A DNA stretch of 35,447 bases from Anaerolineae bacterium (GTDB lineage Bacteria > Chloroflexota > Anaerolineae > Promineifilales > Promineifilaceae), in contig JANTHP010000006.1 in the NCBI GenBank assembly GCA_024762395.1, forward strand, positions 1 to 35,447, given 5' to 3'. Below are positions 1 to 34,783 of this stretch, piece after piece; position 1 is the stretch's first letter, and each line of letters begins with the position of its first letter. The notes beneath the pieces are model-generated. The model was not told the origin of the DNA. It made no database searches and saw only the letters and a program-made list of their open reading frames with translations. The position numbers and the translations under genes are program-made.

Positions 1-83
1 GAACTGGGTTGGTAACGGCCGTTCCCCCACCGCAGGAACTTTTTTTACGGCCGTTTCGTTCTATATCCAGAAAACCAACCAAC

Positions 84-177
84 GTAACTACTAAGCCTCA
101 GAGGTGACAGTCACTTAATATGGCGATTTGTCATGACCATTGCCTCTGGAGAAAGTGACTGTCGCCTTAGTGGTTAC
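84..177. repeat. 94-bp inverted-repeat element, copy 1
   Basis: GTAACTACTAAG...CAGAGGTGACAGTCACTT...GCCTCTGGAGAAAGTGACTGTCGCCTTAGTGGTTAC. Same layout at 8676-8769 and 27447-27530. Confidence 0.8.
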
Positions 178-203
178 CAACCAACTTATACAGGAAGGAT
201 ATT

Positions 204-1152
204 ATGACCCCCAAAAGATCGTTTCCCATTATTTTATTCATCATGGCATTATTAATCGCCGCTTGTGGCGGCGGCGGTTATGCTATGGAAGCGCCGATGG
301 AACCGGGCATAGCTTATGATGAAGCTGTTTTTGTCGAATCAGAAGGAATGGCGGCTGTGGACGATGCGGCTTTCCGCGACACAGCCGGCACAACCAGCCA
401 AAACATTGACTCAGCGCCAATCCAGGAACGGCTCATCATCCGCACCGGCGATTTGAGCATCGTCGTAGCCGACACCGAAGCTGCCATCGCCCAAATTACG
501 GCAATGGTAGAAAGTAACGGCGGCTGGGTCGTCAGCAGCAGCCTGTACCAATACAGCGAAACGGCCAAAACAGGCGACATCACCGTCCGCGTGCCATCCG
601 ACGGCTACAACAGCGCTCTGGAAGCGATTAAAGGGATGGCGCTGGAAGTGACCCATGAATCTTCCTCCGGCCAGGATGTGACGGATGAATATGTAGACCT
701 CTCCTCCCGGCTGGCGAATCTGGAAGCAACGGCCGCTCGCGTGCGCAGTTTTTTGGATGAGACCAAAAATGTGGAAGAGGCGCTGGCTGTTAATGTGGAA
801 TTGAGCCGTTTGGAAGGGGATATTGAGGTCATCAAGGGCCCGGATGCAGTATTTGAGCCAATCGGCCTCATTTTCCACCATAAGCGTTCATCTGACGCCG
901 GATGAAGCGTCGCAGCCGATTGAGATCGCCGGCTGGCATCCGCAGGGCATTGCCAAAGATGCTGTGGAAGCGTTGGTTGACGCTTTGCAGGGTATCGCCA
1001 GCTTCCTCATCTGGTTTGTCATCTACGCGCTGCCGCTGTTGTTGATTATCGGGGTTCCCATCTGGCTGTTTGTCCGCTTTGTGTGGCGGCGTCGGAAACG
1101 GCGAAAAATGGCTAAAACTCCCGCAGAAACGCCATCTGAAACTGAAGAATAG
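204..1152 (+). pseudogene. DUF4349-type membrane lipoprotein, interrupted by an apparent 1-nt frameshift near 838-843
   Basis: ORF 204-905 has a lipoprotein signal (LLIAACGGGG) and a coiled region (RLIIRTGDLSIVV...SRLEGDIEVIKG). The continuation (RMQYLSQSASFSTISVHL...TM helix...RRRKRRK) lies in the next frame (823-1152). Removing one c from 'aagggcccggatg' restores K-G-R-M-Q-Y-L. Confidence 0.7.
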
Positions 1153-1161
1153 TCGCTGTAG

Positions 1162-1194
1162 ACCTGCGAGGTTTGGAAAACCTCGCAGGTTTTG
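1162..1194. terminator. Bidirectional terminator-like hairpin between convergent genes
   Basis: ACCTGCGAGGTTT-gga-AAACCTCGCAGGT followed by TTTT. 13-bp perfect stem between the stops at 1152 (+) and 1201 (-). Confidence 0.75.
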
Positions 1195-1200
1195 TCGTTT

Positions 1201-1965
1201 TTATTGTTGAATAGCCGCGCGAATGGCAGCCGCGTGGCGTTGGAATTCGGCGGCGCTTTGCATCTGGAATTGGCGGGGGCGGGGCAGGTGGATGGGGATG
1301 CGGTGGGTGATGGCGGCGGGACGGCCGTTTCCCGGATCGCCCCCCATCACCAACACCTCATCAGCCAGCAGGACTGCCTCGCTGATGCTGTGCGTGACCA
1401 TGAACACCGTCACCGGCATCGCCTGCCAGATTCGCAGTAGTTCTTGGCCCATCCGTTCTCGCGTCAGCGCATCCAATGCGCCAAACGGCTCATCCAGCAG
1501 CAGCAGCGGCGGTTCATGCACCAATGCCCGCGCCAGCGCTACCCGCTGCGCCATCCCGCCCGATAGTTGGGCCGGATAGTTTTGCTCAAACCCGGCCAAT
1601 CCAACCAAATCTATCATTTTTTGCACGCGCCGGCGGGCTGACGGGTCGTTTTTTCCTTGTAATTCCAACGGCAGGCGCACATTTTCGGTAACGGTGCGCC
1701 AGGGCATGAGGTTGTCGCGCTGGAATACCAGCCCCACAGGATTGGGGGATTGGTGGGCGGGGTGGTTGGCGATGCTGATTTGACCGGCAGACGGCCGTAA
1801 CAACCCCGCTATCAACCGCAGCAGCGTAGATTTCCCCACCCCCGACGGCCCCACCAGCGCCACAAACGCCCCCGCCGGCACGGACAGTGAAATATCTGTC
1901 AGGACGTGCAGCGGCCCATCCTCAAAGATGTATTCGACTTGAACGGCCGTTAGAAAAGCATCCAT
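1201..1965 (-). CDS. ribZ: ABC transporter ATP-binding protein, NitT/TauT type (predicted riboflavin transporter ATPase)
   Basis: Walker A GPSGVGKST, signature LSGGMAQR, Walker B LLLLDEP. The start at MDAFLTAV is preferred because the longer ORF N-terminus translates the upstream repeat. Confidence 0.8.
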   Translation of the reverse strand: MDAFLTAVQVEYIFEDGPLHVLTDISLSVPAGAFVALVGPSGVGKSTLLRLIAGLLRPSAGQISIANHPAHQSPNPVGLVFQRDNLMPWRTVTENVRLPLELQGKNDPSARRRVQKMIDLVGLAGFEQNYPAQLSGGMAQRVALARALVHEPPLLLLDEPFGALDALTRERMGQELLRIWQAMPVTVFMVTHSISEAVLLADEVLVMGGDPGNGRPAAITHRIPIHLPRPRQFQMQSAAEFQRHAAAIRAAIQQ

Positions 1966-1975
1966 CTGAAAAATT

Positions 1976-2075: not shown

Positions 2076-3048
2076 AAACAAAATCGTTTGTGTACGCCGC
2101 ATCCAAATCATCCACCGGCGCATCCAACAAGCCCATGCCTAATAAAACTTCCTGCGTTTTCTCCCAAGAAGCGGGGTCGGTGTAGCCCAAAGTGTCCGCC
2201 TCCCACATGGGCAGGCTGGCTTCTAATACATTCATGCGGCTGTCGTCCAGCCCTTCGACAAACTGTTTGCTAATTGCGTAAGCTTCCGCCGGATCGGCCA
2301 GCACATCGGCCAAACCGTGCAGCACGGCCCCCACAAACCCTTGTACCAGGGCCGGGTTTGTGGCAATTGTTTCCTCATTGGTGATGATGCCGTTGGAAAC
2401 CATATCCACGTAATCGGCCACGTAAATGACGTTGATGTCTTCGCCCTGGGCGGCCAACTGCACCGGCTCGTTGTTGGCAAAAACGACGACTGCTTCGGAT
2501 TGGCCTGTCATGAGCGATTCGACCTGGTTGAAGCCGATGTCGTTGGCATTGACATCGGCCAGTTTCATCCCGTTGGCATCTAGCAGGCCGGCAAAGCCGA
2601 CGTAGGATGCGCCAAAGAAACCGGGGAGACCGATGTTACGGCCGTTCAAATCAGCAGGCGTTTCAATTCCGGCGGCCGTTTTACTGACAACCGCGATGGG
2701 ATACCGTTGGAACCATTCCAGCACATAGACCACCGGCAGCCCCTGAGCGCGGGCCAAAATAACCTGGTCGCCGCCTACAATAGCAAAAGGCAGCTCATTG
2801 GCGCCCACCAGGGCCATGCCATCGGTCTCAAAACTGTAATCAAACTCAATTTCAATCCCCGCTTCGGCAAAGTAGCCTTTTTCAACCGCCACGTAGTAGG
2901 GCGAATACTGCGGATCGGGAATATAGCCCATTGGCAGCCGAATTTTCATCAATTCATCTGGTATTTCCGCTTCCGGTTCTGCCTTTTGACCGCCACATGC
3001 GGCCAAAACCAGGGTTAATAACACAAAAAATATCAATGTTCGCTTCAT
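2062..3048 (-). CDS. ribY: ABC transporter substrate-binding lipoprotein, NMT1/THI5-like (predicted riboflavin-binding)
   Basis: Lipoprotein signal LVLAACGG; NMT1/THI5 fold features (MGYIPDPQYSPYYVAVEKGYFAEAGIEIEF...). Second gene downstream of an FMN riboswitch. Confidence 0.82.
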   Translation of the reverse strand: MKRTLIFFVLLTLVLAACGGQKAEPEAEIPDELMKIRLPMGYIPDPQYSPYYVAVEKGYFAEAGIEIEFDYSFETDGMALVGANELPFAIVGGDQVILARAQGLPVVYVLEWFQRYPIAVVSKTAAGIETPADLNGRNIGLPGFFGASYVGFAGLLDANGMKLADVNANDIGFNQVESLMTGQSEAVVVFANNEPVQLAAQGEDINVIYVADYVDMVSNGIITNEETIATNPALVQGFVGAVLHGLADVLADPAEAYAISKQFVEGLDDSRMNVLEASLPMWEADTLGYTDPASWEKTQEVLLGMGLLDAPVDDLDAAYTNDFVLNAE

Positions 3049-3067: not shown

Positions 3068-3838
3068 TCATTTGCTCGCCTGCCAACGCAGCAGGCGTTT
3101 TTCTAAAAGCGCGACCAACCCGTACATGACCAACGCAATCGCCGATAACGTAATCAGGACAACAAACACCAAATCGGTTTTGAATTGGTAGCGGGCTGTC
3201 ACCAGTAAATAGCCCAACCCCTGGCTCTTGGGCTGGACAAATTCGCCGACTAATGCGCCAATGACGGACAGCGTGGCCCCAACTTTCAACCCAGCCAGCA
3301 ATATGGGCAGCGCTGCCGGAATTTCCAATTTGGTAAAAATTTGTCGCCGCGTCGCCTGTAACGAGTGCATCAGTTCGTACAATTCAGCCGGTACAGCGCG
3401 TAAACCGGCAATGATGTTGATGAGGATGGGGAAAAAGACGACTAATACGGCTACTAAGACCCGCGCCCAGTAAGTCGAACGCACCCAAATGGTAAGCAGC
3501 GGTGCAATGGCGATGACGGGAATGGCCTGAGACGCGATCAAATAAGGCGACAGCAGCCGCTCGGCCAGGGAGGATTTGGCTAGCAGGTAGCCCAACGGCA
3601 TGGCGATGAGCAGGCCGATGCCCAGGCCGGGCAGTAGTTCGCTGATGGTGATGAGGCTGTGTTTGAGGAGACGGCCGTCTCCCCCCACAATCAACAACTG
3701 CCGCCACACATCTACCGGGCCGGGGAGAATAAATCGGTCATACGCGCCCCATGTCACCAATAAATGCCAGCCCGCCAGCAGCCCCACAAAAGAAACCAAC
3801 ACCATCAACCAGGTTGGTTGTGCATTCAAAAATTTCAT
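3068..3838 (-). CDS. ribX: ABC transporter permease, NitT/TauT type (predicted riboflavin transporter permease)
   Basis: BPD-type permease with EAA-like segment (ELYELMHSLQATRRQIFTKLEIPAALPILLAGLKVGATLSVIGALVGEF). Start MKFLNAQP chosen; the longer ORF runs into the riboswitch. Confidence 0.8.
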   Translation of the reverse strand: MKFLNAQPTWLMVLVSFVGLLAGWHLLVTWGAYDRFILPGPVDVWRQLLIVGGDGRLLKHSLITISELLPGLGIGLLIAMPLGYLLAKSSLAERLLSPYLIASQAIPVIAIAPLLTIWVRSTYWARVLVAVLVVFFPILINIIAGLRAVPAELYELMHSLQATRRQIFTKLEIPAALPILLAGLKVGATLSVIGALVGEFVQPKSQGLGYLLVTARYQFKTDLVFVVLITLSAIALVMYGLVALLEKRLLRWQASK

Positions 3839-4118: not shown

Positions 4119-4146
4119 ACGGCCGTACTGCATGCAATACGGCCGT
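4119..4146. repeat. 28-bp near-perfect palindrome bounded by two ACGGCCGT motifs
   Basis: ACGGCCGTA-CTGCATGCAA-TACGGCCGT with an inner TGCATGCA palindrome. Confidence 0.8.
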
Positions 4147-5792: not shown

Positions 5793-5842
5793 GGGGTTAT
5801 CCTCCTAACTGATAAGGCAACGGCCGTTGCCACTAATAAACA

Positions 5843-6991: not shown

Positions 6992-7687
6992 ATGAGTCAG
7001 GTGCAGCAGCTTTACCAATTGCAGCAAATTGATACGGAAATTCAGGAGAAGAAGCATCGGCTGGGCGAGGTTTTGCGGGCGCAGAAGGAAACTGCTGTGT
7101 TGTTGGCGGCGAGGAAGCGGTTGGAAACGGCCGTTGCCGACCTCCAATCTTGGCAAAAACAGCGGCAAGACCTGGATTTGGAGCGGCAGACCCTCAAAAA
7201 CAAAATCAAAAGCGCCGAACAACGCCTTTACTCCGGCAAAGTCAAAAACCCCAAAGAATTAGCCGATCTGCAAAGCTCTATCGAGTCCATGGGGCGACAA
7301 CGATCGGCTCTGGAAGATGAAATTCTGGAAGCGATGATCATGATCGAGGACGCTGAAACCGAAAAAGGAGCGGCGGAGCAGTCCTTGCAAATGCTTCAGG
7401 CTGATTGGGAACAGTCGCAGGCAGCGTTGAAAATAGAACAAAATGAACTGGCGCTGCGCGTTCATGCGTTAATGGGACAGCGCAAAACGCGCCTGGGTAC
7501 AATCACTTCCCAATCCTTGACGGAATACGACGCTCTCCGTAAAAAGAAACATGGTCTTGCCGTCGTTAAAATTAAAAACAACACATGCACTGGCTGTCAG
7601 CTTAATGTCTCCGCCCAGAAGGAAAAAGAAGCCCGCGAAGGTAAGAAGGTGTATTGTGCCAGTTGCGGCCGCATTTTGGCGATTTAG
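6992..7687 (+). CDS. DUF164 family coiled-coil protein with C4-type zinc ribbon
   Basis: Coiled coil followed by CTGCQLNVSAQKEKEAREGKKVYCASCGRIL. RBS AAGGAG upstream of ATG 6992. Confidence 0.85.
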   Translation: MSQVQQLYQLQQIDTEIQEKKHRLGEVLRAQKETAVLLAARKRLETAVADLQSWQKQRQDLDLERQTLKNKIKSAEQRLYSGKVKNPKELADLQSSIESMGRQRSALEDEILEAMIMIEDAETEKGAAEQSLQMLQADWEQSQAALKIEQNELALRVHALMGQRKTRLGTITSQSLTEYDALRKKKHGLAVVKIKNNTCTGCQLNVSAQKEKEAREGKKVYCASCGRILAI

Positions 7688-7858: not shown

Positions 7859-8578
7859 TTAAAGGGGATAGTAGGCAATCCCCAACGCATCCATAATGGC
7901 AACGGCCGTTGGCGCCACAAACAACGCCGGCAACAAATTCGCCGCCCGGATTTGCTTAATCTCCAACAAACGCAGGCCAATTGAAAGCAAAACCACCCCG
8001 CCCGTCGCCGTCAACTCGGCAATCATCGGCTCGGTAAATACATTGGCCCCCAATCCGGCCAGCAGCGAGATGCCGCCCTGGAAACCCAAAATGACAAAAA
8101 TAGAAGCCAAAACGCCTGGGCCAAGCGTGGTGGCGAAGGCCAGCGCCGCAAATCCATCCATCATGGATTTAATCGCCAGCTTGGTATAGTCGCCAATCAA
8201 ACCGTCTTCAATAGCGCCTTGAATGGTGAGCGGCCCCACGCAAAAAACCAGACTGGCGGTCACAAACCCTTCCACAAACCGCGCGCCGGAGCCGCCTTCC
8301 TGATTTTTGACCAACAAATCGCGCAGCCATTCGCCAAACTGCTCCAGCCGTTTTTCCAGCCGAATCGCCTCGCCAATGAGCGCGCCGACGATAAGGCTGC
8401 CCAAAACGATGAGCGCATTACCGGTGGCAAAGGCGCTGTGCATCCCAATAAACAAGGTAAACAAACCCAACACAGCAAAAATCGTCTCCTGCATCCGGGC
8501 CGGAAAACGATGTCCCAAGACTGTGCCCAACGAACCGCCAATTAAAACAGTTAAAGCGTTGATTAGTGTGCCGATCAT
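7859..8578 (-). CDS. DUF554 family membrane protein (YdfK/YqgA-like)
   Basis: MIGTLINALTVLIGGSLGTVLGHRFPARMQETIFAVLGLFTLFIGMHSAF...; typical length and multi-TM pattern. Confidence 0.85.
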   Translation of the reverse strand: MIGTLINALTVLIGGSLGTVLGHRFPARMQETIFAVLGLFTLFIGMHSAFATGNALIVLGSLIVGALIGEAIRLEKRLEQFGEWLRDLLVKNQEGGSGARFVEGFVTASLVFCVGPLTIQGAIEDGLIGDYTKLAIKSMMDGFAALAFATTLGPGVLASIFVILGFQGGISLLAGLGANVFTEPMIAELTATGGVVLLSIGLRLLEIKQIRAANLLPALFVAPTAVAIMDALGIAYYPL

Positions 8579-8769: not shown

Positions 8770-8900
8770 TGGACTTTTAACCTATTGCAAGTGGTTTATG
8801 AGTCGTTGATGATTCGTGGAACGGCCGTTGTGCAAGCGGCTGCCTGATCTGATAAAATAGGCGTATATCGGGATAAAAATTTTTGGAGTGCTCACAACAT

Positions 8901-9989
8901 ATGGCGCGATACGCTCGATTTGGATTTACGATTGGCTTGTTAGCGGCTGCTTTCTTCATCTTTACGCAGCCGGCAGCGGCCGTTGACTGCTACTACAGCG
9001 ACGCTCTCGGCTTCGTTTGCGACGCCAGCCCGCCGCCGCCCACCTTTGAACCACCTGAACCCTTCCCCAACAGCTTCTTGCCCGACGTAAAATATGCGCG
9101 CTTAAATGATTTGATAAACGTATACGCAGGCCCCAGCCGGGCAGAGCCGATTGTACGCAATGTGGGCGACGGCTTCCTTTTCTCCTCCTTGCAAGGAGCC
9201 GTATACAATGACGCCGGCGAACTTTGGTACATTATCAACCCCGGTGAGTATGTACATGCCGATGATTTACGAGTTGTGGAAGCTTCCGAGTTTACCGGTA
9301 TGGTTGTGAACCGGCAGCCGGAACGGCCGTTTGGTTGGATGATTGTAGATTACTGGTACAGCCTGGAACCCGGCGCCGAACTGGACGAGAGCCTGCCCAA
9401 ACTACCACGCTACACCTTCTTCGAAGTATATGACGCCGTTGAAGCCGAAGACGGCTGGATTTGGTACAATATTGGCCGCGGCCGTTGGATACGGCAAACC
9501 TACGTCAGCGTCATTGACATTACCCCGCGACCAGAAGAAATTGGCCCCGACGAGTATTGGGTAGAAGTAGATTTGTACGAGCAAAGCTTCACCGCCTACG
9601 TAGGCGACCGCATGGTTTACGCCGGATTAATTTCCAGCGGTCTCAACCGGTGGCCGACTTACGAAGGATTATTCCAGGTAGAACAGCGGTTCACCACCAC
9701 CAAAATGTCCGGTGCAGAAGGCAAAGTAGATTACTACTTTGTAGAAGACGTACCTCATACCATGTACTTCGACATGCACAACGAAATCGCCTTACATGGC
9801 GCATATTGGCACGACCGCTTTGGCTACAAGCACAGTCATGGCTGTGTGAATATGCCCCCTCGTGATGCCGAATGGGTATTCAACTGGTCGGCCGATGCGC
9901 CCAACGATTTGTGGGTGCTGGTGCATACATCCAATCCCAACAGCATCTTCGAACGCTACGACATGGAAGCGAACTTTTCCGGGCCATAA
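8901..9989 (+). CDS. L,D-transpeptidase (YkuD domain) with N-terminal SH3-like region
   Basis: Signal peptide; catalytic motif HGAYWHDRFGYKHSHGCVNMPPRDAEWVF. Confidence 0.9.
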   Translation: MARYARFGFTIGLLAAAFFIFTQPAAAVDCYYSDALGFVCDASPPPPTFEPPEPFPNSFLPDVKYARLNDLINVYAGPSRAEPIVRNVGDGFLFSSLQGAVYNDAGELWYIINPGEYVHADDLRVVEASEFTGMVVNRQPERPFGWMIVDYWYSLEPGAELDESLPKLPRYTFFEVYDAVEAEDGWIWYNIGRGRWIRQTYVSVIDITPRPEEIGPDEYWVEVDLYEQSFTAYVGDRMVYAGLISSGLNRWPTYEGLFQVEQRFTTTKMSGAEGKVDYYFVEDVPHTMYFDMHNEIALHGAYWHDRFGYKHSHGCVNMPPRDAEWVFNWSADAPNDLWVLVHTSNPNSIFERYDMEANFSGP

Positions 9990-10880: not shown

Positions 10881-12776
10881 ATGCAAGCAGCTAGAAATCC
10901 GGCCAGAGGCAAGCGGCGCACGCGCGGCGAACGCAACCCCAGCCTGGGTCGGGCTATTCGCTATTTGGGGCGGTATCCCCGGCTAACTATTGCGGCCGTA
11001 ACCGCACTCATCATCGCTACAGGCGCGCAGCTCGCCGTGCCCCAATTAGTGCAAAACATCATTGATACCATCGTCAACAACGCCATCAACAAGGCCATCT
11101 TGGAAATTCCAACAGCATTCCAACAAATGGCCGCCGACCGTTTTGGCCTGGATTTCGCCGCTGCGCAAACCGAATTGGATGGCGCGCCCCGAGCGCTGCT
11201 TTGGGCCGGGTTAACCGTTGTTTTGTTTGCCATTGCGCGCGGGTTGTTCACCTTTGCCCAGACGTACATGTCGCAAACCTTGTCGCAAAACATCGCCTTT
11301 GAGCTGCGCAACGATTTATTTGCCAAAATTCAGCGGCTCAGCTTCAGCTACCACGATAAAAACCGCACCGGTCAGTTGATGATTCGGGCTACGGACGATG
11401 TGGAAAAGCTGCGGATGTTCATCGGGCAAGGGCTGCTGATGGCGCTGCAATCGTTCATTTTGCTTACCGGCACGCTCATTATTTTGTTTGCCACCAATGC
11501 CAAGCTGACGCTGGTGATTCTGCCGGTGCTGCCCATCGCCCTGGTGGTGTTCATGGTTTTTGGCCGCATCGCCATGCCGCTTTTCCGCGAGGCGCAGGTG
11601 CGGCTGGGTAAGGTGAACACCATCTTGCAGGAAAATATGGCAGGGTTGAAGGTGGTGAAGGCGTTTGCCACCGAGCCGCGCGAACAAAAACGATTTGGCG
11701 ACAGCATTGACCATTTGCTGGCGCAGCGGATCACCATCAGCCGCACCTTCTCGTTTTTGTTTCCGTTCATCTTTTTGGTGATGAATTTGGGACAGGCGGC
11801 GATTTTGTATTACGGTGGCCGCCAGATTTTGGATGGCACGCTGACGTTAGGCCAGTGGCAAAAATTTAGTCTCTATCTGGTTTTTGTATTTATTCCAATG
11901 GGCCAGTTGGGGATGATTATCCAGTTTATGGCCCAGGCGTCGGCCAGCGCCACCCGGATTTTTGAGATTTTGGACGCCAAGAATGATGTGGAAAATAAGC
12001 CGGGAGCAGTGGCGTTGGAGCAGGTAAACGGCCGTGTCGAATTCAAGAATCTCTCTTTCCGTTACTTTGAAAGCGGAGAACCCGTCTTAAGCAACCTCAA
12101 CTTCGTGGCCGAACCCGGCCAGACCGTCGCCCTGCTCGGTTCCACCGGCAGCGGTAAATCCACCGTCATCAACCTCATCCCCCGCTTCTACGATGCGACA
12201 GAGGGACAGGTGTTGATTGACGGCCGTGACGTCCGCGACGTCACCATCGAAAGTTTACGCACCCAAATCGGCATTGTGCTGCAAGAAACCACCTTGTTCA
12301 GCGGCACCATTCGGGACAACATCGCTTTCGGCCGTCCCGACGCCACCGAAGAAGAAGTCATCGCCGCCGCTAAAGCCGCCGCCGCCCATGAATTCATCAT
12401 GGAATTCCCCCAAGGCTACGAAACGCCGGTAGGCGAGCGCGGTTCGACGCTCAGCGGTGGCCAAAAACAGCGCATTGCCATCGCCCGCGCCCTGTTATTA
12501 AATCCGCGCATCCTCATTCTGGATGATTCGACCAGCAGCGTAGACCTGAACACGGAATACCAAATCCAACAAGCGCTGGACAAGCTGATGAAAGGGCGCA
12601 CCAGCTTCGTCATCGCCCAACGCATCAGCACGGTACTGAACGCCGACCAGATTTTGGTGCTGGACAAAGGCCGTATTGTTGACCGGGGCGTACATGAAGA
12701 ACTGATGGAACGCAGCGCAATTTATGCTGAAATTTACCATTCGCAGTTAGCTGAGGATGTGGAGATTGATGCGTAA
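10881..12776 (+). CDS. ABC exporter half-transporter (TM + ATPase), subunit 1
   Basis: Six-TM domain; Walker A LLGSTGSGKST, LSGGQKQR, ILDDSTSSVD; RBS AAGGAG before ATG 10881. Confidence 0.92.
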   Translation: MQAARNPARGKRRTRGERNPSLGRAIRYLGRYPRLTIAAVTALIIATGAQLAVPQLVQNIIDTIVNNAINKAILEIPTAFQQMAADRFGLDFAAAQTELDGAPRALLWAGLTVVLFAIARGLFTFAQTYMSQTLSQNIAFELRNDLFAKIQRLSFSYHDKNRTGQLMIRATDDVEKLRMFIGQGLLMALQSFILLTGTLIILFATNAKLTLVILPVLPIALVVFMVFGRIAMPLFREAQVRLGKVNTILQENMAGLKVVKAFATEPREQKRFGDSIDHLLAQRITISRTFSFLFPFIFLVMNLGQAAILYYGGRQILDGTLTLGQWQKFSLYLVFVFIPMGQLGMIIQFMAQASASATRIFEILDAKNDVENKPGAVALEQVNGRVEFKNLSFRYFESGEPVLSNLNFVAEPGQTVALLGSTGSGKSTVINLIPRFYDATEGQVLIDGRDVRDVTIESLRTQIGIVLQETTLFSGTIRDNIAFGRPDATEEEVIAAAKAAAAHEFIMEFPQGYETPVGERGSTLSGGQKQRIAIARALLLNPRILILDDSTSSVDLNTEYQIQQALDKLMKGRTSFVIAQRISTVLNADQILVLDKGRIVDRGVHEELMERSAIYAEIYHSQLAEDVEIDA

Positions 12777-14929: not shown

Positions 14930-15454
14930 ATGGCTGCTAACAAATTCAACCGCCGCATTTACCGCGGTTTCGGCCAGTTTTGGCGCGAGTTTCGTTATCC
15001 GCTGCAAAATCGGGATAAGATCAAAAAGGCAATGAGAGGCGAGTTGGTCTCTTTTGCATTTCGGGAGCGGCTGATGTTGGCGGTAACGGCCGTTAACGGC
15101 TGCCGCTACTGTTCTTATTTCCACGCCAAAGAAGCCGTCAAAGCCGGGCTGCCTGACGACGAATTACAAAAGCTGCTGACCGGCGTGGTAGACGACGCCC
15201 CGCCCGATGAACTGACCGCCCTGCTCTACGCCCAACATTGGGCGGAAAGCAACGCCAACCCTGACCCAGAAGCGCGGCAAAAGCTGATCGAACAGTACGG
15301 CGCAGAGCGGGCGGAAGCCATCGAAACGGTTTTACGGATGATTCGGATGGGGAATCTGCTGGGTAATCAGTGGGATTATTGGCTGTATCGGGTAAGTAAC
15401 GGCCGTTGGGGCCTGACAAAAGCTGACATGAATGGCGTAAAACATAATGCGTAA
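14930..15454 (+). CDS. AhpD-like / carboxymuconolactone decarboxylase family protein
   Basis: RERLMLAVTAVNGCRYCSYFHAKEAVKAGL CxxC-H motif. The longer ORF start is translated repeat. Confidence 0.8.
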   Translation: MAANKFNRRIYRGFGQFWREFRYPLQNRDKIKKAMRGELVSFAFRERLMLAVTAVNGCRYCSYFHAKEAVKAGLPDDELQKLLTGVVDDAPPDELTALLYAQHWAESNANPDPEARQKLIEQYGAERAEAIETVLRMIRMGNLLGNQWDYWLYRVSNGRWGLTKADMNGVKHNA

Positions 15455-22293: not shown

Positions 22294-24609
22294 TCATGGC
22301 GACTTTACCCTGACGGCCACATCTACCGAGTCGCCATTCCCATCCAGCCGCGCCAGCCGCGCGCCGGTGTCAGGATCATACATGCCCACACGAACAACGT
22401 AATCGCCCGGCGGCAAATCGGCAGGGATGGCCAGCGTATGCAAATCGTCTACCCAATCGCCCGCTTGCCACATGGCAGTGGGAAAAAAGTTGTTGACGGG
22501 CGGCGCATCGGCCCCGGCTAACCATTGGTCATCGGCGTCAAGCAGTTGGACAAAAACGGTGTAATTTTGCGTTGGCGCGGCGGCGGCCTGCCAATAAAGG
22601 GTAATGGGCAGGGCGTCGCCGGGCGCGGCGGCGATGACGTCTGAATCGGAATTTATCCCCCAAGCGTAACCGGCCAGCGTAATGCCGTCGGCAAAGGGGA
22701 TGTCCAGGGCGATGTGGCGCGCGTCCGGCGGGTTAGGGTTGGCTAATCGGGCCGGTTCGCCAACGAGGAGGAGGTTGACGGCCGTTCCATCCTCCCATAT
22801 CGCCGGTAACGGTTTCTCCGCCTCGCTGTCGTACAGGCTGACGGATACGCGCAGTTGGGCCGGGGCAACGGCCGTTTCCTTCACCCGCACACGATACGCA
22901 TCCCGCCAAATCTGGCCCGGCCGCCAGCGGCTGGTGGGAATCATTCCCCAGGCCGGATAACGGTTAACTGAGCCAACCGACTCAAACGCCCGTCCCAACA
23001 GATGAACCGAACTGAGGTAATCTTTTTCGACTGGCGATTCTGCCCGCCAATACAAAACAACTTCTACCGGCTCACCGCCAGGCACAACACGCTGATCGGG
23101 CGGCATTTCCACGCCGACGAGTTGGAGTTTACCTTGCCCCGCATCGAACGTGATGGGGCCGAATTGGGCGGAGGCGGGAACGGCCGCTTGGGATTCGCTC
23201 GGCGCTGGCGTCAGCGGTTCTGGAAACGCATACGCCGGCCGAATAACGCCAAACAAGGCATAAATCGTCGTCACAAACGCCAAACCGGGCCAAACCAGCC
23301 GCCAACGGCCGTTGCTAAAACGACTCACCCCCTGCGCCAGTCCCAAACTTAAAGGAAGAATCGCCGGAAGCAGCAAACGTCCCTGCGCCGCCTCCGTTTT
23401 GAGCATAAATAACGCCAAACCGGCATAAACCAGCAGCGGCCAAACCGCCAGCAGCGCGCCGGGCAGCCATTTTTGCCCCAAAATCGCGGTCAATGACAGC
23501 GGTTTCATGCGCTTTACCGTTTTTAACTGGACCGCGAAAGCCAAAACAGCCGCTCCCGTCATGCCGCTCCAAATCCAGTAAATCCAATCGGGCGCGCGCA
23601 CATTAAACCAGCCAAAAACAGCGATGAGCGACAACCATAACCCGCTCGATTCACCCAATATCTGCCAAAGCGTATAGCCGCGATCGCCGCCGGCAATGCG
23701 AATGAATTGGTTGGTTGCCGTCCAATCGCCGTAGAGGGCGCGGTTACGCAGCCACAACCAGCCGGCAATGAGGAAGACGGGGAGGATGAGGGCCAGGAAA
23801 TCAAAGAGTAAAGATTGGAGATTGAATGCTGTGTTTCGGGAATTGGCAGCGGGAAGGCGGCCTGTCCCCAATGCATCGGCTGCGATTCGGATGGCGAGGA
23901 AGCCTATCGCGTATAACAAGAGCAGGACGCCGGCGTTTTTGGCGAGCGCGGCCAGGCCGATTGTGACGCCTAACATGAGGAGCCGGGTGCGGGTAACGGC
24001 CGTTGCCCACAAACGCAGCAACTGCCAAATAACCAATGAGCTAAGGAAGATAATGAGGGGATCGTTACTAACCGCGCTGTGGACAAAATCAAACTGCGGC
24101 AAAAAGGCGGCCAGGGCGACTGCCAGCAGCGCCTTCCCCTCATCATCCGGCCACAGCAAACGGCCGCTGCCGTAAATGCACAGCAAGGTTCCCAATCCCA
24201 ACGCCGCCGAAAACGCGCGTAACAAATGCGCCGCCAGCGCCGCCCCGCGCCAGGGCCAATCGTCCCAACCAATGTGGATAGCCCGGTTGATGTTGGCTGC
24301 GGCGGCGGCGTCGCCAATGGAGACGAACGGGTTGAGCCAAACCTGTTCTCTGGCTTGCGCGGTATCCAGGGGCGCAATCAGCGCGCCGCCCAGCAAATAG
24401 TAAAGCGGCGGCTGGGCCGCTTCCTGGCTCAGCCATTCGTCATATGCGCCGCCGGGAGCCACAAAGGGCAGCTTGCCATTGTCAGCAATGTATTGGGCGG
24501 TGAAGTAGTGCCAATGCTCGTCGGGCGCTTCAAACAGCGGGTTGACAACGCCGTAAGCCAGGGTAACGGCCGCATAGAGCGCCAGCAGCGCAATCAGGGG
24601 GCGTTTCAT
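22294..24609 (-). CDS. Multi-TM glycosyltransferase-like protein (PMT/DUF2142-like) with C-terminal beta-sandwich modules
   Basis: MKRPLIALLALYAAVTLAYGVVNPLFEAPDEHWHYFTAQYIADNGKLPFV; C-terminal repeats VVLYWRAESPVEKDYLSSVHLL and ITLYWQAAAAPTQNYTVFVQLLDADDQWLAGADAPP. Confidence 0.75.
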   Translation of the reverse strand: MKRPLIALLALYAAVTLAYGVVNPLFEAPDEHWHYFTAQYIADNGKLPFVAPGGAYDEWLSQEAAQPPLYYLLGGALIAPLDTAQAREQVWLNPFVSIGDAAAAANINRAIHIGWDDWPWRGAALAAHLLRAFSAALGLGTLLCIYGSGRLLWPDDEGKALLAVALAAFLPQFDFVHSAVSNDPLIIFLSSLVIWQLLRLWATAVTRTRLLMLGVTIGLAALAKNAGVLLLLYAIGFLAIRIAADALGTGRLPAANSRNTAFNLQSLLFDFLALILPVFLIAGWLWLRNRALYGDWTATNQFIRIAGGDRGYTLWQILGESSGLWLSLIAVFGWFNVRAPDWIYWIWSGMTGAAVLAFAVQLKTVKRMKPLSLTAILGQKWLPGALLAVWPLLVYAGLALFMLKTEAAQGRLLLPAILPLSLGLAQGVSRFSNGRWRLVWPGLAFVTTIYALFGVIRPAYAFPEPLTPAPSESQAAVPASAQFGPITFDAGQGKLQLVGVEMPPDQRVVPGGEPVEVVLYWRAESPVEKDYLSSVHLLGRAFESVGSVNRYPAWGMIPTSRWRPGQIWRDAYRVRVKETAVAPAQLRVSVSLYDSEAEKPLPAIWEDGTAVNLLLVGEPARLANPNPPDARHIALDIPFADGITLAGYAWGINSDSDVIAAAPGDALPITLYWQAAAAPTQNYTVFVQLLDADDQWLAGADAPPVNNFFPTAMWQAGDWVDDLHTLAIPADLPPGDYVVRVGMYDPDTGARLARLDGNGDSVDVAVRVKSP

Positions 24610-27404
24610 GGCAGCGTTATGGTTCCCAGGGTGAACTGATTGTCGGCTTGCGGTTGGTCATGGTAGCTAACGGACGGCCGTTCCCCGGTTTCGGGGTTGA
24701 ACAAGCCCACAATGATGGCATAGTCCCCCGGCGGCAAATCGGCCGTTAAATCAAATGTGTAGGCGTCTTCCAGAACCTCATTTTCGCGCCACCCCCGGCT
24801 GGGACGCAGCCCGTTAACCGGCACAAAGGCTTGCTGGGCGGCAATCTCGCCCGCTTCGTTAACGATGTGGACAAAGGAAAAGTAGTCGGCCTGCGGCGGC
24901 GATTGGGCGCGCCAATACAAAACGACGTCTAACGTTTCGCCGCTGTTTTCATACATAAACCCGGCCAATTGGATGTCCGGGCCAAAGTTTACCCGGATGG
25001 GGGTGACGGCGTCGGGCAGCGTTGTGTTGAGGGGCCAGGGGACGACTTCGATGGTTCCCAGTTCGTTTTCGGCTGTGCGCCAGGGCCGCCAGGACGGCCG
25101 TCCCCCAATCGTGCCCGTCTCATCCAGCAGCCGCCAGCGCAGCCGGTAAACGCCGGGTTCGGTTTCCGGGTTGAAGTAAAGGCTGGTTGGCTGGGCGATG
25201 GGCGCGTTGGTGGGCCAGGGATCAAGCCAGGCCGCGCCGGGAATGCCCTCTTGCCGTTTCCACACCTGTCCGTCCGGGGCAATCACAGCCAGTTCGTAGC
25301 GCATGTCGGCGGGCAGCGGGGAGTCGGCCTGCCAATACAGGGTGAAGGGCAGATTGTGGCCGGGCCGGACTTCGTTGTCGGGAAAGGCGGCGCCGAGCAG
25401 GCTGAGGCCGTTTTGGAAGTGGAGTGATGGGGATGTGTACGGCCGTTCCCCCTTTACCGGCCAATGGTCGGACGAGGCCAGGGCAATGTCGGCCAGTTTC
25501 TGCGGCTCGCCCAGCGCGGGGCCGGTTGACGAGACCAATGGTTGGCCGTACAAGGCGTAGCTGCCGGGCGGCGTGCCAAAGGGAATGGACAGGACACAGC
25601 TTTGCCGGATGAGTTCTTTTTGTGGGGAAACGGCCGTTTGCGGCAGCGTCTGTCCCTGAATCAAATAGGTCTCATCATTGGGGCCGCGCAGTGTAAAGCG
25701 CATCTCTGTTCCGGCATTGACAGGCGTATCAGCCTGCCAGAACAAGTCAAAGCGCACAGCGGGCAAGGCGACGGGTTGGGTTCCGTCCAGCCGGATACCG
25801 CGTAACGGCGGCATAGCGGGCCAGCGAATGTCCAGCGAACGGCCGTCCGGCGGCAAACGGTCCACCAGCGGCGGGGCAGTGGTGTAAGTAATTGTACGCA
25901 CTTCAACGGTATGGCCGTCAAAATTACGGTCGTTTATCTCTGTCAAATGGGCGTCCAGCCACGCGCGCACAAAGCCATCGGCGTCCCGCTTGTCGGCTGG
26001 CGGATTGGTTACGTACCAGATGCGGTCAAACTGCTGCGTTAACGCGGTCAAATCCGCCTCGGTTTGCGCGTTGACCCGGTACGGATATGTGGGCAGCGCG
26101 GTGTAGGCAATATCAGTCCGCTGCCGATAATGTTCGTGCAGCGGCAGCAGGACGGCGTCGTTGTACAAAAAAACGTCATTTTCCCCTGCCATGCGCTCAA
26201 CGTAGGCGATGAGGGCGCGAAAATCGTTTTTAGCGTAATGCGGATTGGTGTAAAGATTGGTTAACGAAAGCGCCGGGCCGGTCAGCAGTGCCAATCCTCC
26301 CAGCCCGGCCAACACGCCCCAGGCGGCGGAACCGGCGCGCCGGCGCGCCGCCCTGGCTTGATTGAATAACCAGACAAATCCCCAGGCCACTAATAATAGG
26401 AAGGCGGGACTGCCCAGCATGATGTGCCGCGCGCCCTGGTACATGGGTTTGATGAGCGACCCGGCCATCAAACCAAAGACGATGGCGTATAAATAAACCA
26501 GTAAAAAACTGCGCCGCAGCCAACTGCCCGCGCCGATGACGCCGGCCAAAAGCAGTCCCCAGGCGGCAAGATCGAGCAGTTTTACGCTGAATAGTTTGAC
26601 ATCGGCGGTTAAACCCAGCCCGAAGGCGTGTACGACGTCCTGAATCATGATGCGCGGCGAGACGTAGAAGTAGTTGGCTTCGGCGCCGGTGAAGAGGCGC
26701 GGCCAGTTGGCGTAGATGATGGGGATGGCGGCGGCGATGAGGGCGACGGCCGTGCCCAACAGTAATTTTCGCTGTCCGCCCCGCCACAAGGCCCACGCCC
26801 AAAATGCTGTTTGCGCGCCGATGAGGAAAACGGCCGTGTAATGGGTGTAAATGGTTAATCCGGCCAGGAACAGGTAAAGAAGCGCGTAGCGGTACGGCCG
26901 TGCGCTCGTTATCCCCCGCCACAGCGCGTAAGCGGCCAGCGCGGCCAGCAAAACGGCCAATGTGTACATGCGGGCTTCGTTGCTATACCAGATTTGCAGG
27001 GGGTTAACGGCCGTTAGGAAAGCGGCCGTTATACCCAAACCGCGCCCTCCCAGTCGCCGCCCCAACTGAAAAAGAACGGGGATGAGTAAAACACCCGCCA
27101 ACACAGCCGGGTAGCGATAAGCAAAATCCGTTTCCCCAAATACGCGGCGGCTGACATGGATGAGCAAATAAAAAAGAGCCGGATGCGTATCTCTGCCCAC
27201 ACCATCTTGAATGGTAATTTCGTTACTCAAAATCCTGGCGATTGAATACCCTGATCGCAGCGGCGTCAAGCCCTCGTCCGTCCAAAAGCTAAAATTGTCA
27301 ATGTTGTGCAAGCGTAAAACAAAAGCTGTTAAAAGGATAAAAAATAAGGGGAGCAACCAACGAGAACGAACCCGACGATTTGACTGCGCGGCATCTGCGT
27401 CCAT
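24606..27404 (-). CDS. GT39/PMT-type membrane glycosyltransferase with about three C-terminal beta-sandwich modules
   Basis: FWTDEGLTPLRSGYSIARIL...RDTHPALFYLLIHVSRRVFGETDFAYRYPAVLAGVLLIPVLFQLGRRL; overlaps the next CDS by 4 nt. Confidence 0.82.
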   Translation of the reverse strand: MDADAAQSNRRVRSRWLLPLFFILLTAFVLRLHNIDNFSFWTDEGLTPLRSGYSIARILSNEITIQDGVGRDTHPALFYLLIHVSRRVFGETDFAYRYPAVLAGVLLIPVLFQLGRRLGGRGLGITAAFLTAVNPLQIWYSNEARMYTLAVLLAALAAYALWRGITSARPYRYALLYLFLAGLTIYTHYTAVFLIGAQTAFWAWALWRGGQRKLLLGTAVALIAAAIPIIYANWPRLFTGAEANYFYVSPRIMIQDVVHAFGLGLTADVKLFSVKLLDLAAWGLLLAGVIGAGSWLRRSFLLVYLYAIVFGLMAGSLIKPMYQGARHIMLGSPAFLLLVAWGFVWLFNQARAARRRAGSAAWGVLAGLGGLALLTGPALSLTNLYTNPHYAKNDFRALIAYVERMAGENDVFLYNDAVLLPLHEHYRQRTDIAYTALPTYPYRVNAQTEADLTALTQQFDRIWYVTNPPADKRDADGFVRAWLDAHLTEINDRNFDGHTVEVRTITYTTAPPLVDRLPPDGRSLDIRWPAMPPLRGIRLDGTQPVALPAVRFDLFWQADTPVNAGTEMRFTLRGPNDETYLIQGQTLPQTAVSPQKELIRQSCVLSIPFGTPPGSYALYGQPLVSSTGPALGEPQKLADIALASSDHWPVKGERPYTSPSLHFQNGLSLLGAAFPDNEVRPGHNLPFTLYWQADSPLPADMRYELAVIAPDGQVWKRQEGIPGAAWLDPWPTNAPIAQPTSLYFNPETEPGVYRLRWRLLDETGTIGGRPSWRPWRTAENELGTIEVVPWPLNTTLPDAVTPIRVNFGPDIQLAGFMYENSGETLDVVLYWRAQSPPQADYFSFVHIVNEAGEIAAQQAFVPVNGLRPSRGWRENEVLEDAYTFDLTADLPPGDYAIIVGLFNPETGERPSVSYHDQPQADNQFTLGTITLP

Positions 27405-27805: not shown

Positions 27806-28870
27806 GTGGATCAAACAGAACAACTTCTGAAATCATTAACAGAGGCGCAAGGCGTCCCCGGTTATGAAACCGAAATACGCGCCTTGCTGCGCCAATATAT
27901 GGAGCCGCTGGGAACCGTTACCCAAGATAAATTGGGCAGTCTCATCTGTACCAAAACAGGCGATGGCCCGCGCGTAATGCTGGCGGGGCACATGGACGAA
28001 ATCGGTTTTATGGTTTCGCATATTACCAAAGAAGGATTTCTGCGGTTTGTTCAACTTGGCGGATGGTGGGACCAAGTTTTGTTAGGGCATCGCGTTATCA
28101 TCAAAACGCACAAAGGGGATGTGATCGGTGTTATTGGCGCCAAACCGCCCCATCTTCTCCCCGCTGACGAACGAAATACGGTTGTCATCAAAAAGAAAAT
28201 GTACATTGATATTGGCGCTACTTCCAAAAAGGAAGTTGAAGAAGCAGGTGTTCGTATGGGCGACCCGGTTGTGCCGCTCAGTGAATTTTCGATTCTGGCG
28301 AATCCTAAAACATACATGGCAAAAGCTTTCGACAATCGTGTGGGCTGCGCGCTGGTGATTGATGCGCTCAAACGCTTTCAAAATGAAATGCATCCCAATA
28401 CGATCGTCGGTGTGCAAACGGTCATGGAAGAGGTTGGTATTCGCGGCGCAACAACGAGCGTCCGCGCCGCTAAACCTGATGTGGCGATTGTTCTGGAATC
28501 TGATATTGCCGGTGATGTGCCAGGAATTAAAGAGGATGAATCCAACGTAAAACTGGGTGGCGGGCCTTCGATGATGTTGTATGACGCTCGTATGATTCCT
28601 AATATCAAGCTGCGGGATTTGTTTGTGGAAACGGCCGTTTCCCTCAACATTCCGCTCCAATATTCAGTCATGACCGGCGGGGCCACCGACGGCGCTGCCA
28701 TTCATTTGCATGGCGAAGGTGTTCCCACCGTCGTCATTGGCGTGCCATCGCGGCATATTCACAGCCACAGCGCCATCATCCATCGTGATGATTATGACAG
28801 TGCCGTAAAGTTGGTAACGGCCGTTGTCGCCAAACTAGACAAAGATACAGTTAAAAAATTAACAGAGTAA
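27806..28870 (+). CDS. M42 family metallopeptidase (glutamyl aminopeptidase/endoglucanase-like)
   Basis: GTG start; VMLAGHMDEIGFMV, KAFDNRVGCALVIDAL, VMEEVGIRGA, GVPSRHIHSHSAIIHRDDYDSAV. Confidence 0.93.
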   Translation: MDQTEQLLKSLTEAQGVPGYETEIRALLRQYMEPLGTVTQDKLGSLICTKTGDGPRVMLAGHMDEIGFMVSHITKEGFLRFVQLGGWWDQVLLGHRVIIKTHKGDVIGVIGAKPPHLLPADERNTVVIKKKMYIDIGATSKKEVEEAGVRMGDPVVPLSEFSILANPKTYMAKAFDNRVGCALVIDALKRFQNEMHPNTIVGVQTVMEEVGIRGATTSVRAAKPDVAIVLESDIAGDVPGIKEDESNVKLGGGPSMMLYDARMIPNIKLRDLFVETAVSLNIPLQYSVMTGGATDGAAIHLHGEGVPTVVIGVPSRHIHSHSAIIHRDDYDSAVKLVTAVVAKLDKDTVKKLTE

Positions 28871-28971: not shown

Positions 28972-30639
<1,668 letters not shown>

Positions 30640-30648
30640 AAATCGGTG

Positions 30649-30735: not shown

Positions 30736-30737
30736 AT

Positions 30738-31637: not shown

Positions 31638-31640
31638 CGA

Positions 31641-31701: not shown

Positions 31702-31708
31702 ACTTTGA

Positions 31709-33115
<1,407 letters not shown>

Positions 33116-33116
33116 A

Positions 33117-33183
33117 GTGTGAAACATGAAACGTGAAACGTGATGGGCAACTAGGTTGCTTTCACGTTTCACGTTTCACGTTT
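33117..33183. repeat. Heptad-repeat hairpin (unit CGTGAAA)
   Basis: GTGTGAAACATGAAACGTGAAACGTGATGGGCAACTAGGTTGCTTTCACGTTTCACGTTTCACG. Confidence 0.88.
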
Positions 33184-33200
33184 TCATAATTGAGTAGATT

Positions 33201-33653
33201 ATGGATTGCACGATTGTTACACAAGAACGGACAGTCTTTAACGGCGAGGTAAAGTACGTCAGTCTGCCGGGAACGGAAGGGACGATGGGTATTTTGCCGA
33301 ACCACTCGGCGATGCTGACGACGCTGGGCTTTGGCGAAGTGATGGTGCGCTCCGAAGAGGGTGAGGAATCATTTTTTGCCATTGGCGGCGGGTTTGCCGA
33401 GGTACAGCCGGAAAAGATTGTGGTTTTGGCCGATTCGGCGGAACAGGCTGACGAGATTGATATTGAACGAGCGGAAAAGGCGCGTCAGCGAGCTGAAAAG
33501 TATATGGCGGAAGGCGTGCCGGAAGACCCGGAACGCTACGCGCAAATTCGCGCCTCGCTACAGCGGGCGCAAATTCGGATTGATGTGGCGCGTAAACGCC
33601 GTCGTAAACCGACAATGCCGACGTTGAGCGGAACTGAGCAGAGCGATAATTAA
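33201..33653 (+). CDS. atpC: F-type ATP synthase subunit epsilon
   Basis: MDCTIVTQERTVFNGEVKYVSLPGTEGTMGILPNHSAMLTTLGFGEV. Confidence 0.95.
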   Translation: MDCTIVTQERTVFNGEVKYVSLPGTEGTMGILPNHSAMLTTLGFGEVMVRSEEGEESFFAIGGGFAEVQPEKIVVLADSAEQADEIDIERAEKARQRAEKYMAEGVPEDPERYAQIRASLQRAQIRIDVARKRRRKPTMPTLSGTEQSDN

Positions 33654-33659
33654 TTTGTA

Positions 33660-33736
33660 AGGCGTGGAACGTGAAACGTAAAACGTGAAGGACCGCCAGG
33701 TGGCAATCACGTTTCTCGCTTCACGTTTCACGTTTT
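33660..33736. repeat. Heptad-repeat hairpin (unit CGTGAAA)
   Basis: GGCGTGGAACGTGAAACGTAAAACGTGAAGGACCGCCAGGTGGCAATCACGTTTCTCGCTTCACGTTTCACG. Confidence 0.87.
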
Positions 33737-33766
33737 TTATTGACTTTGGTCAAAAGAGAGTAAATT

Positions 33767-34783
33767 GTGGCTATTTTTACGCCTTATGTGGCCGTTGATT
33801 TGGGGACGGTGAATGTCCTGGTTCACGATCAGGGGCGCGGGGTGGTTTTACAAGAGCCGTCGGTGGTGGCGATCCGCGAGGATGGCAGTAAAACGACGAT
33901 TGTTGAAGTGGGACGGGCGGCGAAGGATATGTACGGCCGTACCCCCGAAGAGATCGAAGTGATGCGGCCGTTGCGAGATGGCGTTATTGCCGACTATTTT
34001 GTCACCCAAGGGATGCTGGAATACTTCATCGGCAAGGTAACGGGGCGGCTGCGGCTGCGTAAACCGGTGGTGATGATCAGCGTGCCCTATGGCGTAACCA
34101 GCGTGGAACGGCGCGCCGTGCGCGAAGCGGCTTTGGCGGCCGGCGCACGCGAGGTTCATTTAATTCCTGAACCGTTGGCGGCGGCGATTGGCGCCGGGCT
34201 ACCCATTGGCACACCAACCGGCAATATGGTTGTGGATTTGGGCGGCGGTTCGACGGAAGCGGCCGTTGTCTCCATGAACGGCATCGTCTGCGCCGAATCG
34301 GTGCGTGTGGGCGGTGTCCATCTGGATGAAGCCATCATTGCCTACATTCGCCGTAAATACAATCTTGTTATTGGCGAACCAACGGCCGAAGCGCTCAAAA
34401 TTAAAATTGGCGCGGCAATGGAATTGGACGAGCCGTTGGAAATGCAGGTGCAAGGCCGCGATCAGGTGGCTGGCTTGCCCAAAACGATCACTGTCAGCAC
34501 GGGCGAAGTGGTGGAGGCGATTGCCGAACCGCTGGCGGCTATTGTCCATGTGATTCGGGCCGTGTTGGCGAAGACGCCGCCGGAGTTATCGTCAGACATC
34601 ATTGATCGCGGGATGGTTTTGAGCGGCGGCGGGGCGCTTTTGCGTGAAATTGAAACGCTCATTACACGAGAGACGGGTGTGCCCGCCTACGTGGCCGATA
34701 ATCCGATGGCTTGTACAGCATTGGGCGCAGGTAAGGCGCTGGCGGAACTGCCTATTTTACAGCGCAGTATTCCTGATTTGTAA
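33767..34783 (+). CDS. mreB: MreB-like actin homologue, rod shape-determining protein
   Basis: GTG start; [66 protein letters not shown]. Confidence 0.92.

What the first reader, a model, noticed from the sequence alone, without database searches (positions are those of the whole stretch)
15..33941. ACGGCCGT is a highly iterated palindrome (HIP1-like) throughout the window
Hand scan finds about 52 exact ACGGCCGT octamers in 35.4 kb, often extended to AACGGCCGTT, GGTAACGGCCGTT or GGAAACGGCCGTTTCC. With roughly 57% GC, chance expectation is about one. Examples start at 15, 47, 1321, 1943, 4119, 4139, 5820, 7127, 8821, 12963, 15086, 19650, 28628 and 28816. In genes it appears in all frames: ACG GCC GTT = TAV in roughly half (e.g. 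ETAVA, VTAVL), xAC GGC CGT = NGR/DGR/YGR, and CGG CCG = RP. It also lies between genes. The DNA word rather than the encoded peptide therefore appears selected or mutationally generated. The cyanobacterial HIP1 octamer GCGATCGC is the established analogue; I know of no described function for this palindrome.
Basis: partly seen in the sequence, partly recalled or inferred. Interest (0 to 1): 0.87.

Follow-up and report, generated by a model that had tools for sequence, protein, structure and literature searches.

The report
A genome-wide ACGGCCGT palindrome in Anaerolineae
One family of uncultured bacteria has filled its genomes with thousands of copies of one 8-letter DNA palindrome, strongly enough to change its proteins; its phages carry the word too, and sister genera use the same six-letter core with different end letters.

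Summary
In detail: 52 exact ACGGCCGT in the window and 7,806 in the 4.9-Mb genome, against 176 for the reversed word. In 435 kb the observed/expected ratio is 36-80, and no other 8-bp palindrome is comparable. In 396 sampled genomes of the class, counts in the thousands occur only in this family. It is a highly iterated palindrome (HIP) outside cyanobacteria, with a fixed CGGCCG core.

Sister genera switch the outer base. TCGGCCGA occurs 7,668 and 9,414 times in two genomes; GCGGCCGC (the NotI site) dominates a sample of a third. Others enrich only CGGCCG, and one uses TGCCGGCA.

Sites occur in all codon frames and between genes, with Poisson spacing and a symmetric degenerate 16-bp consensus. 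In same-genus orthologues 67-72% are kept, against 15-18% of control octamers. The tripeptide TAV is 7-10 times commoner than in relatives lacking the octamer; 97% of TAVs are HIP-coded. Phage contigs carry ACGGCCGT at about 1-4 per kb.

The force therefore acts site by site on all DNA in the cell. A methylation/repair-type lock-in is my best guess, but no responsible enzyme was identified: the best-correlated methyltransferase is neither necessary nor sufficient.

The parts
15..22 (.). HIP site ACGGCCGT (intergenic)
47..54 (.). HIP site (intergenic)
1321..1328 (.). HIP site in ABC ATPase gene
1791..1798 (.). HIP site in ABC ATPase gene
1943..1950 (.). HIP site in ABC ATPase gene
2638..2645 (.). 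HIP site in ABC substrate-binding gene
3671..3678 (.). HIP site in ABC permease gene
4119..4126 (.). HIP site (intergenic)
4139..4146 (.). HIP site (intergenic)
5820..5827 (.). HIP site (intergenic; GGCAACGGCCGTTGCC 16-bp palindrome)
7127..7134 (.). HIP site in zinc-ribbon protein gene
7902..7909 (.). HIP site in DUF554-like gene
8821..8828 (.). HIP site (intergenic)
9323..9330 (.). HIP site in L,D-transpeptidase-like gene
12028..12035 (.). HIP site in ABC exporter gene
12220..12227 (.). HIP site in ABC exporter gene (IDGRDV motif)
12972..12979 (.). HIP site in ABC exporter gene
14251..14258 (.). HIP site in ABC exporter gene (IDGRDV motif)
14359..14366 (.). HIP site in ABC exporter gene
14623..14630 (.). 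HIP site in ABC exporter gene
15086..15093 (.). HIP site in AhpD-like gene
15399..15406 (.). HIP site in AhpD-like gene
16293..16300 (.). HIP site in FmdB-like gene
16920..16927 (.). HIP site in thymidylate kinase-like gene
17829..17836 (.). HIP site in R3H/AAA gene
17883..17890 (.). HIP site in R3H/AAA gene
19649..19656 (.). HIP site in acetyltransferase-like gene
19868..19875 (.). HIP site in acetyltransferase-like gene
20701..20708 (.). HIP site, unit 1 of an 18-bp tandem repeat in a membrane-protein gene
20719..20726 (.). HIP site, unit 2 of the 18-bp tandem repeat
20737..20744 (.). HIP site, unit 3 of the 18-bp tandem repeat
20755..20762 (.). HIP site, unit 4 of the 18-bp tandem repeat
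21184..21191 (.). HIP site in membrane-protein gene
21543..21550 (.). HIP site in membrane-protein gene
22046..22053 (.). HIP site in membrane-protein gene
22778..22785 (.). HIP site in glycosyltransferase-like gene
22868..22875 (.). HIP site in glycosyltransferase-like gene
23305..23312 (.). HIP site in glycosyltransferase-like gene
23996..24003 (.). HIP site in glycosyltransferase-like gene
24674..24681 (.). HIP site in GT39-like gene
25094..25101 (.). HIP site in GT39-like gene
25439..25446 (.). HIP site in GT39-like gene
25630..25637 (.). HIP site in GT39-like gene
25839..25846 (.). HIP site in GT39-like gene
26746..26753 (.). HIP site in GT39-like gene
26830..26837 (.). HIP site in GT39-like gene
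26894..26901 (.). HIP site in GT39-like gene
27007..27014 (.). HIP site in GT39-like gene
28631..28638 (.). HIP site in M42 peptidase-like gene (GGAAACGGCCGTTTCC)
28817..28824 (.). HIP site in M42 peptidase-like gene
29735..29742 (.). HIP site in atpA (codes DGR of LDGRDALV)
33933..33940 (.). HIP site in MreB-like gene

Best explanation
ACGGCCGT is a highly iterated palindrome (HIP) of one Anaerolineae family. It has a hard hexamer core (CGGCCG), a lineage-specific pair of outer bases, and a softer symmetric 16-bp consensus. Shown: a force raises and keeps the word independently at each site, in every reading frame, between genes and in phage DNA, strongly enough to change proteins. Inferred: the force is a sequence-specific recognition step, probably by a symmetric (dimeric) DNA-modifying or repair enzyme, coupled to mismatch or recombinational repair, so that a mutation that creates the word is kept and one that destroys it is reverted. 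This is an Elhai-type methylation-linked lock-in. When the enzyme's preference outside CGGCCG drifts, the genome is rewritten to TCGGCCGA or GCGGCCGC and the old sites decay. The word itself then need not have a further function. The enzyme is not identified.
For: Genome-wide count and O/E. Restriction to one family among 396 genomes of the class. Outer-base switch with constant core. All frames and intergenic, with the same flank consensus in intergenic sites and no left-right covariation at the three flank positions nearest the octamer; flanks specific to full sites. Poisson spacing, CV 1.00, so no local density control. TAV 7-10 times commoner than in relatives lacking the octamer, and 97, 92 and 70% of synonymously possible sites realised in frames 0, 1 and 2, against 0-10% (20% for one 5-site class) for control palindromes. 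No excess of inner one-mismatch sites (105 against 154-166), while one-mismatch sites at the outer base are 2.2 times expected. Strong positional conservation within HIP-sharing genomes, 0 of 16 kept in genomes of another HIP type. Phage contigs with portal, terminase and capsid genes carry it at about 1-4 per kb. If the counts are at equilibrium, O/E 36-80 corresponds to a scaled force of about ln(36-80) = 3.6-4.4 per site (inference).
Against: No methyltransferase or repair gene tracks the HIP. The window's genome has no C5-methyltransferase match, and the best-correlated enzyme (a 660-aa DUF1156-like methyltransferase) is missing from G013, which has the HIP, and present in many genomes without it. 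A 16-bp consensus is longer than usual methyltransferase sites. A selected binding site with additive benefit would give nearly the same statistics. The specific GmeC model predicts outer G..C, which fits only the GCGGCCGC genome.
Confidence: 0.4

Rival explanations
1. The word is a self mark: a host nuclease or recombination complex spares or is redirected by DNA rich in the lineage's HIP, so both chromosome and phages must carry it; genera change the word to shut out adapted phages.
For: Phage contigs carry the host word at host density or above, including in structural genes; the word differs between genera with a constant core.
Against: No such nuclease identified; the word is palindromic and Poisson-spaced, unlike Chi; the same phage pattern follows from a lock-in acting on any DNA replicated in the host.
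Confidence: 0.2
2. Binding site of an abundant dimeric architectural or regulatory protein, kept by weak selection at each site.
For: Symmetric 16-bp consensus without left-right covariation at the innermost flank positions, flanks specific to full sites, high positional conservation.
Against: Commoner in coding than non-coding DNA (1.66 against 1.12 per kb), no spacing regularity, phages carry it too, rewriting of about 10,000 sites when the word changes.
Confidence: 0.2
3. DNA-uptake or Chi-like word accumulated through recombination bias.
For: Thousands of short dispersed copies, as with DUS/USS (from general knowledge).
Against: Palindromic; inner one-mismatch copies are not enriched (105 against 154-166), whereas USS/DUS genomes, from recollection, have many near-sites; spacing is not even.
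Confidence: 0.08
4. By-product of codon usage or of a favoured peptide (TAV).
For: About half of genic sites code TAV.
Against: Three frames and intergenic copies; TAV is nearly always coded by the HIP; [NDHY]GR shows the same; genera with another word lack TAV enrichment.
Confidence: 0.01
5. Dispersed mobile repeat (REP/MITE) or restriction site.
For: Repeated palindrome; other intergenic repeats exist in the window.
Against: Homology between copies stops at the degenerate 16-bp consensus; variation between orthologues is mostly by substitution; restriction sites are avoided, not enriched, and phages carry the word.
Confidence: 0.02

Closest known systems
HIP1 (GCGATCGC) of cyanobacteria and its alternates (TCGATCGA, GGGATCCC, GGCGCC, rCCGGy, GCsGC), PMC4390886
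   Same: Very high O/E palindromic octamer, one copy per several hundred bp, in and between genes; one-mismatch copies at the outer base; hexamer core kept while the outer base changes (GCGATCGC/TCGATCGA); related genomes with a different word.
   Different: Unrelated core (CGGCCG), another phylum; the outer base changes between genera of one family with near-complete replacement; the outer A..T and T..A do not fit the GmeC model; saturation of codon-permitted sites, tripeptide enrichment and phage genomes carrying the word are shown here; no matching methyltransferase established.
DNA uptake sequences / USS and Chi sites
   Same: Short, genome-wide, over-represented words.
   Different: Palindromic, Poisson-spaced, no cloud of inner one-mismatch copies.
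Restriction-modification sites (EagI CGGCCG, NotI GCGGCCGC)
   Same: Same recognition sequences.
   Different: Enriched 36-fold or more in host and also enriched in phage, instead of avoided.

Membership tests
Highly iterated palindrome (HIP) | Palindromic octamer far above Markov expectation genome-wide | tested here: met
   7,806 copies; O/E 36-80
Highly iterated palindrome (HIP) | Dispersed in all frames and between genes | tested here: met
   346/194/80 in frames, 69 intergenic
Highly iterated palindrome (HIP) | One-mismatch copies concentrated at first/last base | tested here: met
   outer 258 vs about 119; inner 105 vs 154-166
Highly iterated palindrome (HIP) | Relatives with an alternate word | tested here: met
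   TCGGCCGA 7,668 and 9,414; GCGGCCGC in G015; TGCCGGCA in G012
Highly iterated palindrome (HIP) | Resident orphan methyltransferase for the core | tested here: inconclusive
   best correlate is a 660-aa DUF1156-like enzyme: 21/23 octamer genomes vs 4/11 others in the family, but absent in G013 and present without HIP elsewhere
HIP1 proper | Sequence GCGATCGC | tested here: not met
   1 copy in the window
Restriction-modification target | Avoidance in host and phage | tested here: not met
   enriched in both
DUS/USS | Non-palindromic word with many inner near-matches | tested here: not met
   palindrome; near-matches below expectation
Chi | Non-palindromic, oriented with replication | tested here: not met
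   the word is its own reverse complement
Highly iterated palindrome (HIP) | Methylation of the core in vivo | not testable with these tools
   no methylation calls available

The most novel reading that the evidence does not exclude
The word is a genus-specific molecular password: DNA without enough copies is degraded or not replicated in the cell, so phages must be rewritten to carry it, and genera escape phages by changing the bases outside CGGCCG. The arms race rewrites host and phage proteomes.
Probability: 0.12. Interest if true: 0.97.

Novelty: new variant of a known kind. Interest (0 to 1): 0.8.

Why it matters
The cause of HIP1 has been open since 1995, partly because it was known only from cyanobacteria. 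A second, independent case within one family gives about a dozen contrasts (same core, different outer bases; octamer, hexamer only or none). It also gives two new facts any explanation must meet: phages carry the word, and the word alters proteins. It is also a caution for protein analysis: in these genomes TAV, NGR and DGR tripeptides mostly report a DNA word.

Tried and rejected
Correlating methyltransferase families with HIP type: C5 (PF00145), N4/N6 (PF01555) and D12 (PF02086). The D12 enzyme is present in most family members regardless of HIP; C5 enzymes are absent from several HIP-rich genomes. A 660-aa DUF1156-like methyltransferase looked promising, but homologues at 50-61% identity in Planctomycetota, Desulfobacterales, Gemmatimonadota and Dehalococcoidia records carry no CGGCCG enrichment, and it is not found in HIP-rich G013. 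Hairpin/cruciform selection rejected: no left-right covariation of flanks at positions 1-3, z 3.4 at position 4 only. Codon-driven flank rejected: intergenic sites have the same flank. The GmeC repair model in its published form does not predict outer A..T or T..A. A phage-encoded methyltransferase on L398 is not close to a shared host enzyme. One apparent TCGGCCGA-rich viral contig (L508) is a single repetitive gene.
Full report
OBSERVATION. The window (35,447 bases, 54.3% GC) holds exactly 52 ACGGCCGT. The genome it comes from (4.91 Mb in 500 contigs; the window is contig 6) holds 7,806, against 176 for the same-composition word read backwards. In a 435-kb sample of this genome there are 691 copies against 8.6, 9.9 or 19.1 expected under Markov orders 0, 1 and 2, and the next most common 8-bp palindrome has 51 copies at O/E 1.1.

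DISTRIBUTION. In 59 relatives the word is counted in thousands in most genera of the same family (up to 12,866) and near background in other families. In 396 genomes of the class, no genome outside the family exceeds 430 copies, while members reach 14,867. NCBI titles of related records (Ardenticatenales/Ardenticatenaceae, Promineifilum, 'Anaerolineae bacterium') place the group in Anaerolineae, Chloroflexota. The exact family name was not established.

THE WORD CHANGES, THE CORE STAYS. Family members poor in ACGGCCGT often use another word. Two genomes carry TCGGCCGA (G009 7,668; G032 9,414 copies; about 15-300 in genomes rich in ACGGCCGT). G015 carries GCGGCCGC: 85 of its 93 sampled CGGCCG sites have that context. 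With 13,814 CGGCCG genome-wide, that implies a NotI site about every 600-700 bases (inference). G007, G018 and G027 enrich CGGCCG with little or no octamer preference (O/E 3.8-6.8). G012 avoids CGGCCG (447 against 7,315 GCCGGC) and enriches TGCCGGCA (3,665). The next base out is also lineage-specific: T in G000, G013 and G020; C in G014; A or G in others.

ANATOMY. In G000 the symmetric context is roughly GGNAACGGCCGTTNCC: T 55% at +1, C 52% at +3, C 54% at +4. The same preferences occur in the 69 intergenic copies (T 56, C 47, C 53), so they are not a codon effect. CGGCCG sites without the outer T/A lack them (C 32 and 27%). Left and right flanks vary independently at positions 1-3 (z -0.5, 0.3, -0.4; position 4 gives 3.4), which argues against a hairpin and suits independent half-site contacts. 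Spacing is Poisson-like (CV 1.00), with a deficit only at short distances (2.2% against 4.7% below 30 bases; 11.8% against 14.9% below 100).

STRENGTH. In 329 called genes of the sample, 346 of 356 TAV tripeptides and 194 of 210 [NDHY]GR are coded by the word. Of all sites where the code permits the word, 97, 92 and 70% in frames 0, 1 and 2 are the word; control palindromes reach 0-10% (20% for one class with only 5 sites). This is partly because the word creates the tripeptides. TAV density is 7.1 and 10.5 times that of family and order members without the octamer or with another word. TAVs not coded by the word are 2.6-4.8 times rarer (p 0.03 and 0.001). Members with TCGGCCGA show the same for SA[DE] (68 of 74), and G015 for AAA (79 of 90). 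Proteins have therefore been changed. Inner one-mismatch copies are below expectation (105 against 154-166), while copies with one wrong outer base are in excess (258 against about 119). Genes were called by a simple script, not a published gene finder.

CONSERVATION. Window sites aligned to orthologues at about 76-78% DNA identity: 24 of 36 (G001) and 26 of 36 (G002) are identical octamers, against 18 and 15% of octamers with the same letters (p 7e-10 and 8e-13). In the more distant G014, 14 of 33 against 15%. In genomes with another word, 0 of 16, where 6% would be expected by the same control.

PHAGES. IMG/VR contigs found by the 16-bp word or by paired words carry ACGGCCGT at about 1-4 per kb, O/E mostly about 60-240. 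Several encode portal, terminase, head-protease or endolysin proteins, and the word lies inside such genes. The codon-permitted sites are again mostly realised (150 of 161, 115 of 145, 32 of 49), and the flanks match the host's (these contigs were selected by one extended site each, and some loci come from one contig). Whether they are prophages or lytic phages was not determined, and hosts are inferred from the word alone.

MECHANISM. Shown: the force is DNA-level, acts site by site without local density control, holds sites over long times, extends to phage DNA and changes specificity outside a constant hexamer. At equilibrium the O/E corresponds to a scaled force of about 4 per site (inference), so either weak selection in a large population or a matching bias in mutation/repair suffices; the data here do not separate them. 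I favour a recognition-coupled repair lock-in of the kind proposed for HIP1 (PMC4390886). It explains the lack of density control, the phages and wholesale replacement after a change of specificity without requiring benefit at every site. Its published GmeC form does not explain outer A..T or T..A.

METHYLTRANSFERASE. G000 has no C5-methyltransferase match. The only amino-methyltransferase found in common among G000 and two well-assembled HIP-rich genomes with few such enzymes (G019, G020) is a 660-aa DUF1156-like protein (split over two contigs in G000). It is present in 21 of 23 octamer genomes against 4 of 11 others in the family (Fisher p 0.002, not corrected for phylogeny). It is missing from G013 (95% complete, 6,514 sites), and homologues at 50-61% identity in other phyla have no HIP. 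It is a candidate at best.

NOVELTY. HIPs, alternates and outer-base derivatives are known in cyanobacteria (PMC4390886). No report for Chloroflexota or for this word was found in the searched library, which does not hold all journals. I rate it a new variant of a known kind.

Noticed in passing
window 4182-4260, 12765-12797, 14844-14890, 30683-30733, 33104-33196, 33656-33741, 34780-34812, 1993-2075: Intergenic runs of heptanucleotide units such as CGTGAAA, AATTACC and CATTCAT (spacings of 7, 14 or 21), reminiscent of the heptanucleotide repeats (STRR) of cyanobacteria.
   Followed up: no
window about 6545-6750; also 1970-2078, 4157-4252, 7805-7860, 12760-12832, 30652-30733: Intergenic stretches with many dispersed similar copies in sister genomes G001 and G002; the 6545-6750 stretch looks like an interspersed element.
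   Followed up: no
window 20699-20767: Four tandem 18-bp units each holding a HIP, coding repeated LTAVTQ in a membrane protein.
   Followed up: no
G015, G018: GCCGGC is almost absent (51 in 8.0 Mb; 132 in 4.1 Mb) while CGGCCG is very common; G012 shows the reverse.
   Followed up: partly
window 28972-33653 (atp genes): Only one HIP in about 4.7 kb of ATP synthase genes, at a conserved DGR; the word is sparse in strongly conserved genes.
   Followed up: partly
L398:9695-10948 (-): A HIP-dense phage contig encodes an N4/N6-type DNA methyltransferase (PF01555), only distantly similar to host enzymes.
   Followed up: partly
L126:1501-3507 and homologues (A1): A 660-aa DUF1156-like methyltransferase with zinc-ribbon-like cysteines is found across many phyla at 50-60% identity, suggesting transfer; recognition sequence unknown.
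   Followed up: partly
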